From contig JAHHHD010000001.1 of NCBI GenBank assembly GCA_019359505.1, forward strand, positions 1 to 64,000: DNA of 64,000 bases, given 5' to 3'. A model generated the notes under the pieces. It made no database searches, was not told where the DNA came from, and was given only the letters and a program-made list of their open reading frames with translations. The position numbers and the translations under genes are program-made. Positions 32,774 through 38,142 of this stretch are shown in pieces (within the stretch, counting starts at the first letter, position 1; each line of letters begins with the position of its first letter). This DNA comes from Drouetiella hepatica Uher 2000/2452. GTDB taxonomy: Bacteria > Cyanobacteriota > Cyanobacteriia > Elainellales > Elainellaceae.

Positions 32774-34564
32774 CTAAAGCTGGTTAAGCTGAATCCAGAG
32801 ATCGTGAGTCAGTTGAATGTATGCCTTGAGCTTCAGAATTTGCTCATGTAGGTTGTCTAGCTCTAAGGGAAACTCAGCAGTAATCCAGTTACCCAATTCG
32901 CCATTGGTCATGGTGTCAATCAGGTGTAGCGTTTCATCCCTATAGACATTAAGCTGTGTCTTAAACAAGGCACAGTTTTTTTTAAAGGCAAGCGCCATGT
33001 TCTGAATTTTGTCGTATTGGCTCAAGGCAGAAGCAGAAGAGCGATCGCGGTATTCCCATTCCAAGGCAGTCTCTAACAGCTCGATCGCTTCTTGCCAGTT
33101 TCCCAAGCCTTCTTCTACGTCTAGAAATCGGTAGTTCAAATCCCCTCGAATTTCATCTGCCCGTCGCCGCATTTCTGAGAAAGCTTCAGAATCAAACTGC
33201 TCTCCATCAGGACGGCTGGACAAATCTCGGTTAAACCTGGGAGCACAGGGAATGACGCTTGCCCCTCGATCTTGCAAAGCAGTTCGGTTTGCATCGCTGA
33301 ATCCCAAATTTTCCCAAAATTTAGTTTCTGTGACGATCGCCTCCTCCAATAAAATCCCGCTGAGATCGGCACCATTCAAATCAGCCCCGCTGAGATCGGA
33401 ATGCTGCAAATTAACATCGCTCATATAGGAGCGTTTGAACATGGCATTTTCAAGATTGGCGAAACGGAAGTTTGCGCGGAGTAGGTTTGCGCCAATCCAA
33501 TCGGCATGACTCAAGTTTGCCTTCGTAAAGTTTGCTCCCACCAGGTAGGCGCGGTTAAGTCGGGTGTGGCTTAGATTAGCTTCCTGTAGGTTGGCATCAC
33601 TCAGATTAACGCGCAGTAAGATAGCGTCCTGCAAGTTTGCCCGCGTTAAATCTACAAAGATTAATCGGGCACCGCTTAGGTTGGCTCCCTGGAGGTTCGC
33701 TGAGCTGAGATTGGCACCGCTCAAATTTATGCCGCTCAGATCTGCATTGCTGAGATCTGCATTTTGAAGCTGAGTACAGGACAGATTAGCATGACTAAGA
33801 TTGGCACCGCTTAAGATGGCGTGTTCCAGATCGGCACCCCGTAAACTGACTCCGGTGAGCTGGGCATGACTCAAATTTGCTCTCTTCAGGCTGCTGCGCC
33901 TCAAAATAGCACCGCGCAATTGAGCTGCTCTCAAGTCTGCGCCGCTTAGGTCGGTGCCGCTCAGATCTGCCCCTGAGAGAAAAGCGCCTTTGAGGTCAGC
34001 ATTCTGCAATAGCGCATTAACCAGGTTTACCTGTCGCAGTTTGGCATCGCAGAGGCTGGCGTTACAGAGGTCGGCATGGTGCAAGTCGCTCCCGCGTAAG
34101 TTTGCTTTTGTCAGAATAGCTTGGCGAAAGTTCACGCCGCGCAACACCGCATTATTGAGCTGAGCCGCATAGAGGGTCGCTTGCTGAAGAATGGTACCTG
34201 AGAGGTCTGCGCGTTCTAGCAAAGCTCCATTGAGATTGGCTCCCGTCAAGTTTGCGCCACCCAGATTTGCACCCTGCAATTGGGCACCTTGCAAATTGAC
34301 TCCCTGCAACTGGGCATGAATGAGAACTGCGCCCCGCAAATCAATTTCCTGCAAATCAAGATGCCGTAGGTCTGCACCGATATAGTTTCCATAAGGTTGA
34401 AATCTTCTTCTCTCTAAAGAGGTAAGCAGAATATTTTCAACAGGCACATTCTGTATTTCATTCAACTGTCCTCTGTTATATAAATCTATAAGTCGATTTA
34501 TTCCAGATTGAGAACCTTCTAAGACAAGTCTGACAGTCCTTGATTGTACTTTTTCTAAATCCAT
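32774..34564 (-). CDS. pentapeptide-repeat protein with split-domain N-terminus, 596 aa
   Basis: Residues 1-50 (VQSRTVRLVLEGSQSGINRL, then IDLYNRGQLNEI and a VPVENILL end) look like the second half of a small alpha/beta domain. Residues 60-415 are about 70 pentapeptide repeats of A(D/N)LxG type (for example ADLSGTDLSGADL), forming a long right-handed beta-helix. Residues 420-596 are hydrophilic and helical, with Trp and acidic patches (LDVEEGLGNWQEAIELLETA). No signal or membrane segment is seen. The ATG at 34564 has GAGGCGA before it. It lies 11 bases after the CHAT protease stop, so they form one operon. It is probably a cytosolic scaffold or target of the protease. Function is unknown. Confidence 0.88.
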   Translation of the reverse strand: MDLEKVQSRTVRLVLEGSQSGINRLIDLYNRGQLNEIQNVPVENILLTSLERRRFQPYGNYIGADLRHLDLQEIDLRGAVLIHAQLQGVNLQGAQLQGANLGGANLTGANLNGALLERADLSGTILQQATLYAAQLNNAVLRGVNFRQAILTKANLRGSDLHHADLCNASLCDAKLRQVNLVNALLQNADLKGAFLSGADLSGTDLSGADLRAAQLRGAILRRSSLKRANLSHAQLTGVSLRGADLEHAILSGANLSHANLSCTQLQNADLSNADLSGINLSGANLSSANLQGANLSGARLIFVDLTRANLQDAILLRVNLSDANLQEANLSHTRLNRAYLVGANFTKANLSHADWIGANLLRANFRFANLENAMFKRSYMSDVNLQHSDLSGADLNGADLSGILLEEAIVTETKFWENLGFSDANRTALQDRGASVIPCAPRFNRDLSSRPDGEQFDSEAFSEMRRRADEIRGDLNYRFLDVEEGLGNWQEAIELLETALEWEYRDRSSASALSQYDKIQNMALAFKKNCALFKTQLNVYRDETLHLIDTMTNGELGNWITAEFPLELDNLHEQILKLKAYIQLTHDLWIQLNQL

Positions 34565-34575
34565 ATTCGCCTCTT

Positions 34576-35292
34576 CTATGGTTCCAATAGTGTCATGTCA
34601 GCATCTCCTGATATTTTACGAAGATGAGCAACCATGGCTTCAACTAACGAGCGGTCATCACGGTTAATCGTTGCCGTAACCACCACAGTTAATCTAGTTG
34701 GTGCTTCTGTCTTATAGTTTATGTTTCTATGAAGAACAGGAATGAAGTGTCCTGAAAGATTTTCTAATTGAATTTCTACACAACCGGCTTCATGTGCCTT
34801 CTCAATATCGCTGCAATCTGCCCCTATTGCTTTGTAAAATCCAGTAGAAAATGCGATTGCAGCTTTGTCTCCTATTTCCTGGCTCATTCCAACAACGTAA
34901 GGAATATATTGAGCAATGGCTTTTGCCTGAATCTCTGAATGACATGTGTTCAAGACAACGCATTTTACATGTTTAGATGCCAGTTTGAATAGGCTTGCTA
35001 AAGCGTCTAATTGAACGGTCTGCACTTTTCCCAATCTATCCTCGATACAAAGCTCACCCGAACTCATACCATGCCCAGAAAAGTGAACTATGTGTGGGCT
35101 GAAAGCAAGAATTGCTTGAGTAATGTCACCTGAACGGATAGCCTCACGGGACTCTAGGATAATTTCGTTCCTCAAGCAAGCCATCTGTAGCTTTTCACGA
35201 ATTTCCCGGAGTTCCTGCCCTACACGTAACCGAACCTTATCACTTGGATCTGAGGATAAAAATAGGATCTTGGTTTGATTAAGGGCTTCCAT
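34576..35292 (-). CDS. CHAT-domain (caspase-like) protease, 238 aa
   Basis: Residues 8-190 form a CHAT fold. The catalytic dyad is His74 in HIVHFSGHG and Cys117 in CVVLNTCHS, and the typical VVGMSQEIGDKAAIAFSTGF segment follows. Residues 198-238 (RLTVVVTATINRDDRSLVEA, then a SGDADMTLLEP end) resemble the first half of a small domain. Its expected second half appears at the N-terminus of the downstream pentapeptide protein. CHAT proteases act in bacterial conflict and regulated cell death when activated by a partner. The ATG at 35292 is the first. It is divergent from the 862-residue HTH protein across 261 bases containing a strong palindrome. Lower GC content than the flanking housekeeping genes. 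Confidence 0.87.
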   Translation of the reverse strand: MEALNQTKILFLSSDPSDKVRLRVGQELREIREKLQMACLRNEIILESREAIRSGDITQAILAFSPHIVHFSGHGMSSGELCIEDRLGKVQTVQLDALASLFKLASKHVKCVVLNTCHSEIQAKAIAQYIPYVVGMSQEIGDKAAIAFSTGFYKAIGADCSDIEKAHEAGCVEIQLENLSGHFIPVLHRNINYKTEAPTRLTVVVTATINRDDRSLVEAMVAHLRKISGDADMTLLEP

Positions 35293-35383
35293 TTTTGAAT
35301 TATGAGGAATAGCTTCAAGGCTTTCAGACCTGATCGTTTTAGTCTTTACTCCTACATTTGCCCAAAGCAGTTGCTGAGCCTAC

Positions 35384-35412
35384 CACTAATTAAAGATGCA
35401 CTTTAATTAGTG
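35384..35412. promoter_or_regulatory. perfect 12-bp inverted repeat, candidate operator
   Basis: CACTAATTAAAG and CTTTAATTAGTG are exact complements with loop ATGCA. It lies 91 bases upstream of the CHAT gene and 141 upstream of the divergent HTH gene, and no T run follows. A regulator-binding site is therefore more likely than a terminator. The HTH protein is the obvious candidate binder, by inference. Confidence 0.55.
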
Positions 35413-35464
35413 TAATATCTAGGCTACCATAACTGTCCATAGAAATACATATGCAAATATCTGA

Positions 35465-35528
35465 CTAAAAAATAGATGATAAATTGATTAAGCTACTGTT
35501 TTTTATAATTAAGTGTCTAAAAAATAGA
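35465..35528. promoter_or_regulatory. direct repeat CTAAAAAATAGA, candidate operator pair
   Basis: The 12-mer occurs at 35465-35476 and 35517-35528. The copies are 52 bases apart, about five helical turns. The second copy lies within GTCTA-AAAAA-TAGAC, a short inverted repeat, and just precedes the AAGGAG ribosome binding site of the HTH gene. Autoregulation is possible. Confidence 0.45.
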
Positions 35529-35553
35529 CAAATTACTCCAAGGAGCAAAGTTC

Positions 35554-38142
35554 ATGACTGAGGACGCGATCGACGAGTTGCAATACACACAGCAGCAGCA
35601 GCGCTACTGGGAGCAGTTACGACAAGAGCTAGAGCGCTATAAAGCTGACCTAGGGGCAACCCATACAGAGATAGCCCAATGTCTTGGCATTAGCCGCCAG
35701 CCGTTAGTAGTTTTTATGCAGGACTCAAGCCAAGGATTGCCGATTCAGCGATCGAATCTGGTGCGGCTATGGGATCTCCTGACAGAGCCAACGCGCTTCC
35801 GCAAAAAATACTCGCCAGAAGAGCGATCGAATCGAGCCGCTCTGAGACAGCAAGGAGCCAATGCCTTATTAAAAGCAGCAGGATTTCTTCCAGACGTGAA
35901 CGAACAGTCGTTAGAAATTCATTCCAATCGCCATCAGCAAATTCAGCGCTTGGTATCGAGGTTGTCGAATTTGCCTGTTTCAGATTTTGCGGATTTCATC
36001 ACGTTAACCGATTTTTTAGAAACCTTTGTAACTAACTCTTTTCCCGGTCGATATAAAACTGCGCTAGAAGAAACCCAAATTTTGGATAGCGATGCTGACT
36101 CTAGCTCAATCGATCGCGTAGATTACTGGATCAAGAAAAATCATCTGCCTAACATTCCCGATCCAGTTGTTAAAGATAAATTGCAAGGCGCACTTTCTCG
36201 GCTAGCTATTTCGGGAAAATCTAAGCTAAATAATGCTGAATTTTTTGAGCTGTATATGTCGATCGCTGAAAATGAGCGGTTGACTAATCATGTTGATAAA
36301 TTCCTCAAAATGCGGATCACGCAGTGTCAATTTACAACATTGACTTTTTCAGTCCAATCCTATCTCTCTGCCGAAGAAGACAGCCTCATTTGGCAGGATT
36401 TTTGTGAGGCAAGTCTGGCTGTAGAGCAATGTCTTCGCCCACAAATTCATGAGAGAAGCGACCTAGAGGATTCTGTTGCCGAACCTGTGATTGAAAGCTC
36501 GATTACCTGCAATTTTAGAGAAGCCAAGCAGGACGTTCGCTGGCGCTACAGCTCTTCTACAACCCATTTTGAAACGATGCTGGCGGCGATCGGTCGAGGA
36601 ATGGGCTATGATTCTGAGCTGGAAATGGTGGATTTCTCTATCCGAACTTTGGGTCACAAAGACTATAGTTTGATTCGCGCTTCTTCCGCATTTCGACCCA
36701 TTCATTCCACTAATCCTACTGACTACAAGTCTTACCAGAGCGTTTGGATCGATCGCAGCGCTATTTTTGGCATCCTGCAATCTACCATTCTTGCCGTTAG
36801 AGGCTGGCTCTCCGAAAACTTTCCAGATGAATCTAGTTGCCGCACCTACTGTGAAACTTGCCAAATTGTTTCTAGCATTAATGACAGCCTCATCAAAGGG
36901 AAAAGTTTTTTGAATGGCTATCGTATTCATCAGGCAGCCTATTCCGGTAGATTGTCAACTAGCGATTATCTGGAAAAAGAAGTAATTGAGAAAATTAAAG
37001 GGTTAAAAGAAGGTGTATTTAAGCAATATCCAAAATTGCAAGACTGTTATGAATCCGATTTAGATCGCAAGTATTGTGTGGCTAAACTGGCTTGCGCTCA
37101 CTCTGCTTTAGTTGAAGGCAATATGATCACAGCATCGCGCTTGCTGCTAGAAGTTGAGGATTTTCTTGAGAGCCTTGATTTTCAAAAAAGTTCCAAGGAA
37201 AACAAACACCTTCTCAAGATTTCCTATGCGATCGAGCTGAACTTGCAATGCTTTTACCGAGGCGATTCAGTAATCTTTTCAAATCATCAAAAATGGCGTA
37301 CTGAACTGCAAAATTTCCTCAGTCAGCTCAGCACTTATATTGATGATTGCAATCAAAATTCAGGACAATTTGCTTCTGATACTTATATGAATGTCTCAGA
37401 GCTATACGGGCGACTGGCTCGTCTCAATTTCTGCTGCTGCAACGCCGATGAAATTGAGGACTTAGAATCTGCGGTCAGGTATTCTCTGATGGCGGCGTAC
37501 TGTTCGGCTAAAACGGGTCATCAGCACCGAACGGCACACTGGATTAGCAACGCGGGTCGAACCTGTGTGCGTTTGGGCGAGGGCGATCGCGCTAAAGGAT
37601 TTGCCGATCTTGCCGATCGGATTATTAGCCGTGCTAGTGAGCCGACCCATAGCCCAGAATATCAGGAAGCCATTCGGGCTGAGGTCAATATTGCCAGAGG
37701 AGAACGCCTTTTGTTGATTGAAAAAGACCCTGCGAGAGCGCTGAACTACTTTTTGCGATCGCTCAAAGGCTCCATCTATATTGGCTTTGTTCGATTAATT
37801 GCCGATAATTTGTATGACATTGCGCGAGCTTCTAAAGACTTAGGTAACTATCGGATTAAAAAGTCTTTTTCATCGGCATTTGGCAAGAGTGACCCTAAAA
37901 CAAATTGGCTTTTGAACGAAGATAATCAGAGCTGGCAGGAAAATAAAATTGCGGCAGAAGTGATTCAGTTCATCAACAAAATTGATAAAGAAGAGGACTG
38001 GAGTTTCGTTTCAATTCAGTTTAAAGAACAAGCGCAGAAAATCTGGCGTGGTCTGGCAAATTTCAATGATCCAAGCAACAGCTTGCCCCATCCTCTTGAA
38101 GCACAAATGGAGGCAGAGGAGTTTCTCAACCGAGTGAAATGA
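35554..38142 (+). CDS. large helical protein with N-terminal helix-turn-helix, 862 aa
   Basis: I do not recognise the family. Residues 8-75 look like a Cro/XRE-type DNA-binding unit (LGATHTEIAQCLGISRQPLV). The rest is overwhelmingly helical and hydrophilic. From about 480 it has TPR-like pairs (ALVEGNMITASRLLLEVEDF; RTAHWISNAGRTCVRLGEGD; ARGERLLLIEKDPARALNYF). A Cys-rich point lies at NFCCCNADE (about 628). No enzymatic motif, signal or membrane segment is visible. ATG at 35554 follows AAGGAG. It is divergent from the CHAT-pentapeptide operon and shares its AT-rich codon use. A sensor/regulator role for that operon is plausible, not shown. The stop is four bases from the convergent kinase gene. 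Confidence 0.85.
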   Translation: MTEDAIDELQYTQQQQRYWEQLRQELERYKADLGATHTEIAQCLGISRQPLVVFMQDSSQGLPIQRSNLVRLWDLLTEPTRFRKKYSPEERSNRAALRQQGANALLKAAGFLPDVNEQSLEIHSNRHQQIQRLVSRLSNLPVSDFADFITLTDFLETFVTNSFPGRYKTALEETQILDSDADSSSIDRVDYWIKKNHLPNIPDPVVKDKLQGALSRLAISGKSKLNNAEFFELYMSIAENERLTNHVDKFLKMRITQCQFTTLTFSVQSYLSAEEDSLIWQDFCEASLAVEQCLRPQIHERSDLEDSVAEPVIESSITCNFREAKQDVRWRYSSSTTHFETMLAAIGRGMGYDSELEMVDFSIRTLGHKDYSLIRASSAFRPIHSTNPTDYKSYQSVWIDRSAIFGILQSTILAVRGWLSENFPDESSCRTYCETCQIVSSINDSLIKGKSFLNGYRIHQAAYSGRLSTSDYLEKEVIEKIKGLKEGVFKQYPKLQDCYESDLDRKYCVAKLACAHSALVEGNMITASRLLLEVEDFLESLDFQKSSKENKHLLKISYAIELNLQCFYRGDSVIFSNHQKWRTELQNFLSQLSTYIDDCNQNSGQFASDTYMNVSELYGRLARLNFCCCNADEIEDLESAVRYSLMAAYCSAKTGHQHRTAHWISNAGRTCVRLGEGDRAKGFADLADRIISRASEPTHSPEYQEAIRAEVNIARGERLLLIEKDPARALNYFLRSLKGSIYIGFVRLIADNLYDIARASKDLGNYRIKKSFSSAFGKSDPKTNWLLNEDNQSWQENKIAAEVIQFINKIDKEEDWSFVSIQFKEQAQKIWRGLANFNDPSNSLPHPLEAQMEAEEFLNRVK

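What the first reader, a model, noticed from the sequence alone, without database searches (positions are those of the whole stretch)
32774..38142. CHAT protease, pentapeptide-repeat protein and a divergent HTH protein as a possible conflict or cell-death module
A CHAT protease (H74/C117 dyad) and a pentapeptide-repeat protein are in one operon with an 11-base gap. Divergent is an 862-residue helical protein with an N-terminal helix-turn-helix, and the 261-base intergenic region has operator-like palindromes. All three share lower GC than the flanking kinase and housekeeping genes. CHAT proteases are known to act in bacterial conflict systems when a partner licenses them. The combination with a long beta-helix scaffold and an HTH/TPR sensor is not one I recognise as a named system.
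Basis: partly seen in the sequence, partly recalled or inferred. Interest (0 to 1): 0.85.

Follow-up and report, generated by a model that had tools for sequence, protein, structure and literature searches.

The report
CHAT protease grafted onto pentapeptide scaffold
In one cyanobacterium a caspase-like protease gene has been inserted next to an older, conserved pair of genes (a likely DNA-binding protein and a pentapeptide-repeat scaffold), and the adaptor domain that should join protease to scaffold is cut in two, one half on each protein, so the locus shows a possible cell-death effector being captured, or decaying after capture.

Summary
The three ORFs, the gaps and the H74/C117 dyad are confirmed. 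The proposed three-gene module is not: CHAT is absent from the other HTH-pentapeptide loci. What is conserved is a pair, the 862-aa HTH protein divergent from the pentapeptide protein (7 genomes), with a palindromic site TGTCTA-N5-TAGACA between them. The site is kept even where the HTH protein faces a STAND NTPase instead, once STAND-TPR-TRADD-N-TIR. In the window a ~1.0-kb, 40% GC segment (34400-35431) lies inside this pair. It carries CHAT and the first ~55 codons of the pentapeptide ORF. The CHAT tail and the pentapeptide N-terminus are two halves of one TRADD-N adaptor domain; nine other cyanobacterial ORFs carry CHAT-type sequence contiguous with a whole TRADD-N. Here it is split at strand beta-2, present in both halves, and the second gene restarts 11 nt after the CHAT stop. 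Most likely: a captured effector tethered to the scaffold by a split adaptor, under control of the HTH protein. Main rival: decay of a fusion. A new variant of the known TRADD-N conflict theme, not a conserved three-part system.

The parts
35554..38142 (+). HTH860: 862-aa all-helical protein with a putative N-terminal helix-turn-helix (aa ~35-57; helix SRQPLVxFMQ); likely regulator/sensor of the locus
   Evidence: Relatives in 15/390 genomes of the class; invariant SRQPLV helix in 6 aligned relatives; Pfam HTH hits only sub-threshold
35514..35530 (.). Palindromic site TGTCTAAAAAATAGACA, 40 nt before the HTH860 start; candidate operator
   Evidence: 12/12 also in G003, FACHB-63, G021; 11/12 in G274, G026, G188; 10/12 in G002
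35462..35478 (.). Second, weaker copy of the site (TGACTAAAAAATAGATG, 9/12), 52 nt away
   Evidence: G003 has a second copy (11/12) at the same spacing
34400..35431 (-). Segment absent from relatives (inserted or replaced): CHAT, its upstream region and the TRADD-N half of the pentapeptide ORF
   Evidence: Collinearity with L057/L058 breaks here and resumes on both sides; 39.9% GC
35384..35412 (.). Perfect 12+5+12 palindrome upstream of CHAT, flanked by AGCCTACCA/AGGCTACCA near-repeats, near the edge of the inserted segment
   Evidence: unique in the genome at up to 3 mismatches
34576..35292 (-). CHAT protease ORF, 238 aa; protease module about aa 1-190 (34723-35292), H74 at 35071-35073, C117 at 34942-34944
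   Evidence: PF12770 28.5 bits; PADLOC chat 3.1e-14; 8tl0 1.3e-12; dyad conserved
34585..34686 (-). N-terminal half of a TRADD-N domain (beta1-alpha1-beta2) at the CHAT C-terminus
   Evidence: HMM of 30 contiguous TRADD-N: positions 3-36, 18.9 bits, 6.8e-5
34565..34575 (-). Junction: CHAT TAG stop, then AAGAGG (Shine-Dalgarno-like) CGAAT before the ATG of the pentapeptide ORF, which is in the -1 frame
   Evidence: Sequence, three-frame translation
34430..34564 (-). C-terminal half of the TRADD-N domain (beta2'-beta3-alpha2-beta4) at the N-terminus of the pentapeptide protein
   Evidence: PF20694 26.1 bits, profile 27-67 of 69; own HMM 28-77, 39.4 bits, 2.7e-11
32774..34564 (-). Pentapeptide-repeat scaffold ORF, 596 aa; beta-helix about aa 57-412
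   Evidence: Pfam; AF2 beta-helix with pLDDT >90 for most of it; Foldseek HetL 3du1 5.6e-14
32777..33328 (-). C-terminal helical domain of the scaffold (three long helices, aa ~459-595), shared by a cyanobacterial pentapeptide family
   Evidence: AF2; found in 17/380 genomes

Best explanation
A conserved two-gene unit (HTH860 regulator or sensor, and a divergent pentapeptide scaffold) has, in this lineage only, captured a CHAT-TRADD-N effector cassette. Shown by comparison: CHAT with a TRADD-N domain lies between the two genes and is joined to the scaffold's N-terminus. Shown: the TRADD-N is now split between two proteins at beta-2, with beta-2-like sequence in both halves, and the scaffold is restarted from its own SD/ATG 11 nt after the CHAT stop. 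Inferred: the co-translated halves pair up again to form the TRADD-N fold and so dock the protease on the scaffold, doing in two chains what a one-chain CHAT-TRADD-N-repeat protein would do. Inferred: HTH860 binds TGTCTA-N5-TAGACA in the shared region, controls itself and the scaffold/protease operon, and may sense the signal through its helical part. Inferred: on a signal the CHAT protease is activated and cleaves target proteins, with a defensive or suicidal outcome.
For: Split domain: (both halves best match the same contiguous CHAT-TRADD-N ORFs; the N-half scores as in intact domains). Contiguous CHAT-TRADD-N ORFs elsewhere. Insertion. Conserved pair and site, also with a STAND partner. 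Catalytic dyad intact and both ORFs open. SD and ATG at the restart.
Against: The split is seen in one genome only, so selection on it cannot be measured. The C-half scores low for its kind (45.1 vs mean 56.5 bits, better than 2 of 30). The scaffold N-terminus is not folded in the AF2 model (pLDDT <50), although no relatives inform it. No protease substrate, signal or partner is known. The HTH is weakly supported by profile.
Confidence: 0.5

Rival explanations
1. Decay after fusion. The insertion made a CHAT-TRADD-N-pentapeptide fusion; a later internal repeat and frameshift broke it. CHAT is now uncoupled and on its way to being lost, and the scaffold survives by restarting at a nearby ATG.
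For: Single occurrence; weaker C-half score; CHAT-type matches with stop codons are common in this group of genomes, including the host.
Against: Both ORFs are fully open, the dyad is intact, the N-half tail has not decayed (24.9 vs mean 23.6 bits), and the restart has an SD-like stretch.
Confidence: 0.28
2. CHAT and scaffold are independent. CHAT works alone, its tail serving for example as a self-association element; the TRADD-N piece on the scaffold is an inert leader left by the insertion, and the scaffold keeps its ancestral role with HTH860.
For: Small CHAT modules occur as short ORFs without a recognised C-terminal domain (L036, 224 aa). The scaffold occurs without CHAT in all relatives.
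Against: The two halves are complementary parts of one domain and lie in one operon with an 11-nt gap.
Confidence: 0.14
3. Sequencing or assembly error: the window really encodes one CHAT-TRADD-N-pentapeptide protein and a 1-nt indel creates the apparent split.
For: A single 1-nt change in the 21-nt stretch open in both frames would join the frames; the genome is a draft of 87 contigs.
Against: No homopolymer there; the restart ATG has a proper SD-like stretch; the doubled beta-2 would remain unexplained.
Confidence: 0.05
4. A conserved three-gene CHAT/pentapeptide/HTH conflict module.
For: The three genes are adjacent in the window.
Against: CHAT is absent between the genes in all six other HTH-pentapeptide loci.
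Confidence: 0.03

Closest known systems
Bacterial TRADD-N conflict proteins (PF20694; Kaur, Iyer, Burroughs and Aravind 2021, PMC8195603)
   Same: TRADD-N between an N-terminal effector (caspases among them) and C-terminal repeats (pentapeptide among them), in multicellular-type bacteria including cyanobacteria.
   Different: There the parts are in one polypeptide; here the domain is divided over two proteins, with beta-2 in both, and the scaffold belongs to an older pair with HTH860.
Contiguous CHAT-TRADD-N proteins of cyanobacteria (L064, L073-L076, L078, L083, L086, L087)
   Same: Homologous CHAT and TRADD-N in the same order; up to 55% identity over the CHAT protein.
   Different: They continue into DUF1830, vWA-like, LuxR-type HTH or other parts, not into this scaffold, and are not split.
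TPR-CHAT (Csx29, Craspase) and SAVED-CHAT effectors
   Same: CHAT protease whose activity depends on a partner or on a regulatory domain (general knowledge; 8tl0 hit).
   Different: No SAVED domain, no TPR domain on CHAT, no CRISPR effector among the neighbours examined.
HetL and other cyanobacterial pentapeptide proteins
   Same: Best fold and sequence matches for the beta-helix.
   Different: HetL score 217, below the cut-off of 260; extra helical C-terminal domain and a TRADD-N half.

Membership tests
Bacterial TRADD-N effector proteins | A TRADD-N domain (PF20694 over cut-off) | tested here: met
   26.1 bits vs 23.7, but only positions 27-67 on one protein; the rest on the CHAT protein by own HMM
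Bacterial TRADD-N effector proteins | Effector, TRADD-N and repeats in one polypeptide | tested here: not met
   Two ORFs, different frames, stop between them
CHAT proteases | CHAT domain with His/Cys dyad | tested here: met
   28.5 bits vs 24; H74, C117 conserved
CHAT proteases | Proteolytic activity | not testable with these tools
   Needs an assay, with C117A as control
Three-gene CHAT/pentapeptide/HTH module | The three genes co-occur in other genomes | tested here: not met
   0 of 6 other HTH-pentapeptide loci have CHAT between the genes
HTH860-pentapeptide pair | Divergent neighbours in several genomes, with a shared intergenic site | tested here: met
   7 genomes; site in 8 of 9 close HTH860 loci, counting two with a STAND partner
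HTH transcription regulators | Recognisable HTH domain and DNA binding | tested here: inconclusive
   Pfam HTH hits at E 0.02-0.1, below cut-offs; binding not testable here
HetL family | NCBIfam NF047416 over cut-off | tested here: not met
   217 vs 260 bits
SAVED-CHAT / Craspase (TPR-CHAT) | SAVED or TPR domain on CHAT, or a Cas7-11 partner | tested here: not met
   No such Pfam domain on the CHAT protein; none in the flanking proteins examined

The most novel reading that the evidence does not exclude
A naturally split adaptor: the two halves of a TRADD-N domain sit on separate, co-translated proteins and must complement each other, so the protease is docked only when its scaffold is made beside it. 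This would be a licensing device created by inserting an effector cassette into an existing regulator-scaffold pair.
Probability: 0.3. Interest if true: 0.75.

Novelty: new variant of a known kind. Interest (0 to 1): 0.5.

Why it matters
If the split is functional, it shows how a conflict system gains an effector: a cassette lands in an old regulator/scaffold pair and its adaptor domain becomes the joint between two chains. Independently of that, the locus points to a conserved pair (HTH860 and pentapeptide scaffold) for which I found no description, with a precise, testable DNA site that stays with the regulator even when its partner is a STAND NTPase instead of the scaffold.

Tried and rejected
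Programmed -1 frameshift joining CHAT to the scaffold: the stretch open in both frames is 21 nt and has no slippery heptamer. RNA structure at the junction: z-score 0.62, no signal. The 12+5+12 palindrome as a repeated mobile-element end: unique in the genome at up to 3 mismatches. Recombination between two TRADD-N subtypes: both halves match the same CHAT-type. A clean recent tandem duplication of beta-2: only 16/32 identity at the 32-nt offset, so if a duplication it is old or was mutated. HTH860 fold: AF2 pLDDT 44, so no fold search was made; no PDB relative by profile. Defence island: only a weak NUDIX hit among ten flanking proteins. Close genomes with the same split: none in the 36-genome family/order. 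CHAT tree: unresolved group with CHAT-TRADD-N, CHAT-TIR and CHAT-GUN4, so the donor cannot be named. One search was a malformed submission.

Full report
Observation. The three ORFs are at the stated coordinates: 596 aa (32774-34564, -), 238 aa (34576-35292, -) and 862 aa (35554-38142, +), with an 11-nt gap and a 261-nt divergent region. Pfam finds CHAT in the second (28.5 bits, cut-off 24) and pentapeptide repeats in the first. The PDB sequence search finds chain 8tl0, deposited as a CHAT domain-containing protein, at 1.3e-12. H74 and C117 are kept in 44 and 45 of 45 CHAT sequences compared. The claim of low GC in all three genes is wrong for the pentapeptide body (49.7%; window 50.2%); low are CHAT (42.1%), HTH (44.3%) and, strikingly, the first ~55 codons of the pentapeptide ORF (32.7%).

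A split domain. Pfam also reports TRADD-like_N (PF20694) in the pentapeptide ORF, but only profile positions 27-67 of 69. The CHAT protein has a ~45-aa tail after the protease module. A homologue in G032 has CHAT and a whole TRADD-N in one 404-aa ORF, and it aligns first to the CHAT tail, then to the pentapeptide N-terminus. I built an HMM from 30 contiguous cyanobacterial TRADD-N domains, the window not included, and scanned all window ORFs. The top two are these two proteins: the pentapeptide N-terminus at positions 28-77 (39.4 bits, 2.7e-11) and the CHAT tail at 3-36 (18.9 bits, 6.8e-5); the next ORF has E=0.8. Positions 28-36 (strand beta-2, by the known RRM-like fold of TRADD-N) are present twice: DADMTLLEP at the end of CHAT and EANMDLEKV at the start of the other. 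Both halves score best against the same contiguous CHAT-TRADD-N ORFs, so they probably derive from one such gene. The N-half scores as in contiguous domains (24.9 vs mean 23.6 bits); the C-half is on the low side (45.1 vs mean 56.5).

Junction. CHAT ends ...LLEP-TAG and AAGAGG-CGAAT-ATG follows, a Shine-Dalgarno-like stretch 5 nt before the start codon. The second ORF is in the -1 frame; the stretch open in both frames is 21 nt and has no slippery heptamer. Re-initiation is therefore more likely than frameshifting (inference).

Insertion. Compared with the same-genus genome G002, collinearity runs from 39879 through HTH860 to 35432, breaks, and resumes at 34399 inside the pentapeptide ORF; G003 breaks at 35425 and 34390. 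In both, the pentapeptide gene starts directly opposite HTH860, without CHAT and without the TRADD-N half. The same CHAT-free arrangement is in FACHB-471, FACHB-63, G274 and G188. The segment 34400-35431 (39.9% GC) is therefore most simply a gain in the window's lineage; the alternative needs repeated losses. No transposase or terminal repeat was found; a 12+5+12 palindrome near one edge is unique in the genome.

The conserved pair. HTH860 relatives are in 15 of 390 genomes of the class; FACHB-63 is also in the named collection. In seven loci the divergent neighbour is the pentapeptide protein with its helical C-terminal domain; in two (G021, G026) it is a STAND NTPase, in G021 STAND-TPR-TRADD-N-TIR. 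The pentapeptide family also occurs without HTH860 (C-terminal domain in 17 of 380 genomes).

The site. The divergent region holds TGTCTA-N5-TAGACA: 12/12 in window, G003, FACHB-63 and G021; 11/12 in G274, G026 and G188; 10/12 in G002. Scans of ten genomes find 0-2 exact sites each, and in window, G003, G021 and FACHB-63 one of them lies at HTH860. I noticed the motif in the window and its closer relatives; G021, G026 and G188 are independent checks, and each best match there was reached in none of 300 shuffles. Against this: G019 has a 1-nt deletion in its copy; G106 and G116, which keep the SRQPLV helix, have only weak matches; the four paralogues with a different helix have none. That is 8 of 11 versus 0 of 4, about p=0.03, on related sequences and therefore only suggestive. 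It makes HTH860 a likely DNA-binding regulator, although Pfam HTH hits are below threshold and its model is poor.

CHAT elsewhere. The same ~190-aa module is fused to TIR, GUN4, TPR repeats and Shedu SduA_C and to contiguous TRADD-N. On plasmid NZ_CP050441 it lies at the 3' end of a gene annotated as a pentapeptide protein, beside a NACHT NTPase gene. The host genome has 18 CHAT-type matches. This is the shuffling expected of conflict effectors. The TRADD-N paper describes variable N-terminal effectors, caspases included, and C-terminal repeats, pentapeptides included, within one protein (PMC8195603). A search for descriptions of a split TRADD-N gave none in the library, which does not hold all papers.

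Mechanism. I favour a split adaptor that tethers CHAT to the pentapeptide scaffold, with HTH860 controlling expression (0.5). Shown: split domain, lineage-specific segment, conserved pair, conserved site. Inferred: reconstitution of the fold, DNA binding, protease activation, cell death or defence. The main rival is decay of a short-lived fusion (0.28). No relative with the split was found among the 36 genomes of the family/order or 390 of the class, so selection cannot be measured; this is the weakest point.

Limits. Genome searches are samples of up to 390 genomes of a larger class. The complex could not be modelled. The scaffold model is good for beta-helix and helices but below 50 in pLDDT at the N-terminus, where the alignment has no relatives. 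The function of the split adaptor rests on homology alone.

Noticed in passing
G000 contig C60, about 71-124 kb (L047-L049): The host genome has a dense cluster of CHAT-module genes on one contig (about nine of the 18 matches), of varied length up to ~1500 aa: probably a conflict-gene island.
   Followed up: partly
L061:8931-12146 (G021): A STAND-TPR-TRADD-N-TIR protein is encoded opposite an HTH860 relative, with the TGTCTA-N5-TAGACA site between them; a broken CHAT-type match lies on the same contig, about 7-8 kb from the STAND gene.
   Followed up: partly
L071:11554-12816 (FACHB-63): CHAT fused to the Shedu SduA C-terminal nuclease domain, about 5 kb from the HTH860-pentapeptide pair.
   Followed up: no
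L033:3825-5021 (host genome) and L035:802-2238: CHAT fused to a GUN4-like domain: a protease module joined to a tetrapyrrole-binding-type domain.
   Followed up: no
L062, L063, L081, L082, L085, L089: Recurrent pentapeptide proteins with a TRADD-N and an N-terminal segment that looks HTH-like; only L063 has a Pfam HTH hit there (HTH_26), and L063 also ends in a Peptidase S24 domain.
   Followed up: partly
NZ_CP050441.1 3075-7424 (L135): Tolypothrix PCC 7910 plasmid: a gene annotated as pentapeptide protein has the CHAT module at its 3' end and is followed by a NACHT NTPase gene.
   Followed up: partly
window 35384-35412: Perfect 12+5+12 palindrome (CACTAATTAAAG-atgca-CTTTAATTAGTG) between near-identical 9-nt repeats at the edge of the inserted segment; operator, terminator or insertion scar is open.
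   Followed up: partly
L157 and L158 (G029, G021): The pentapeptide family with the helical C-terminal domain also occurs alone beside housekeeping genes, so it has a role apart from HTH860 and CHAT.
   Followed up: no
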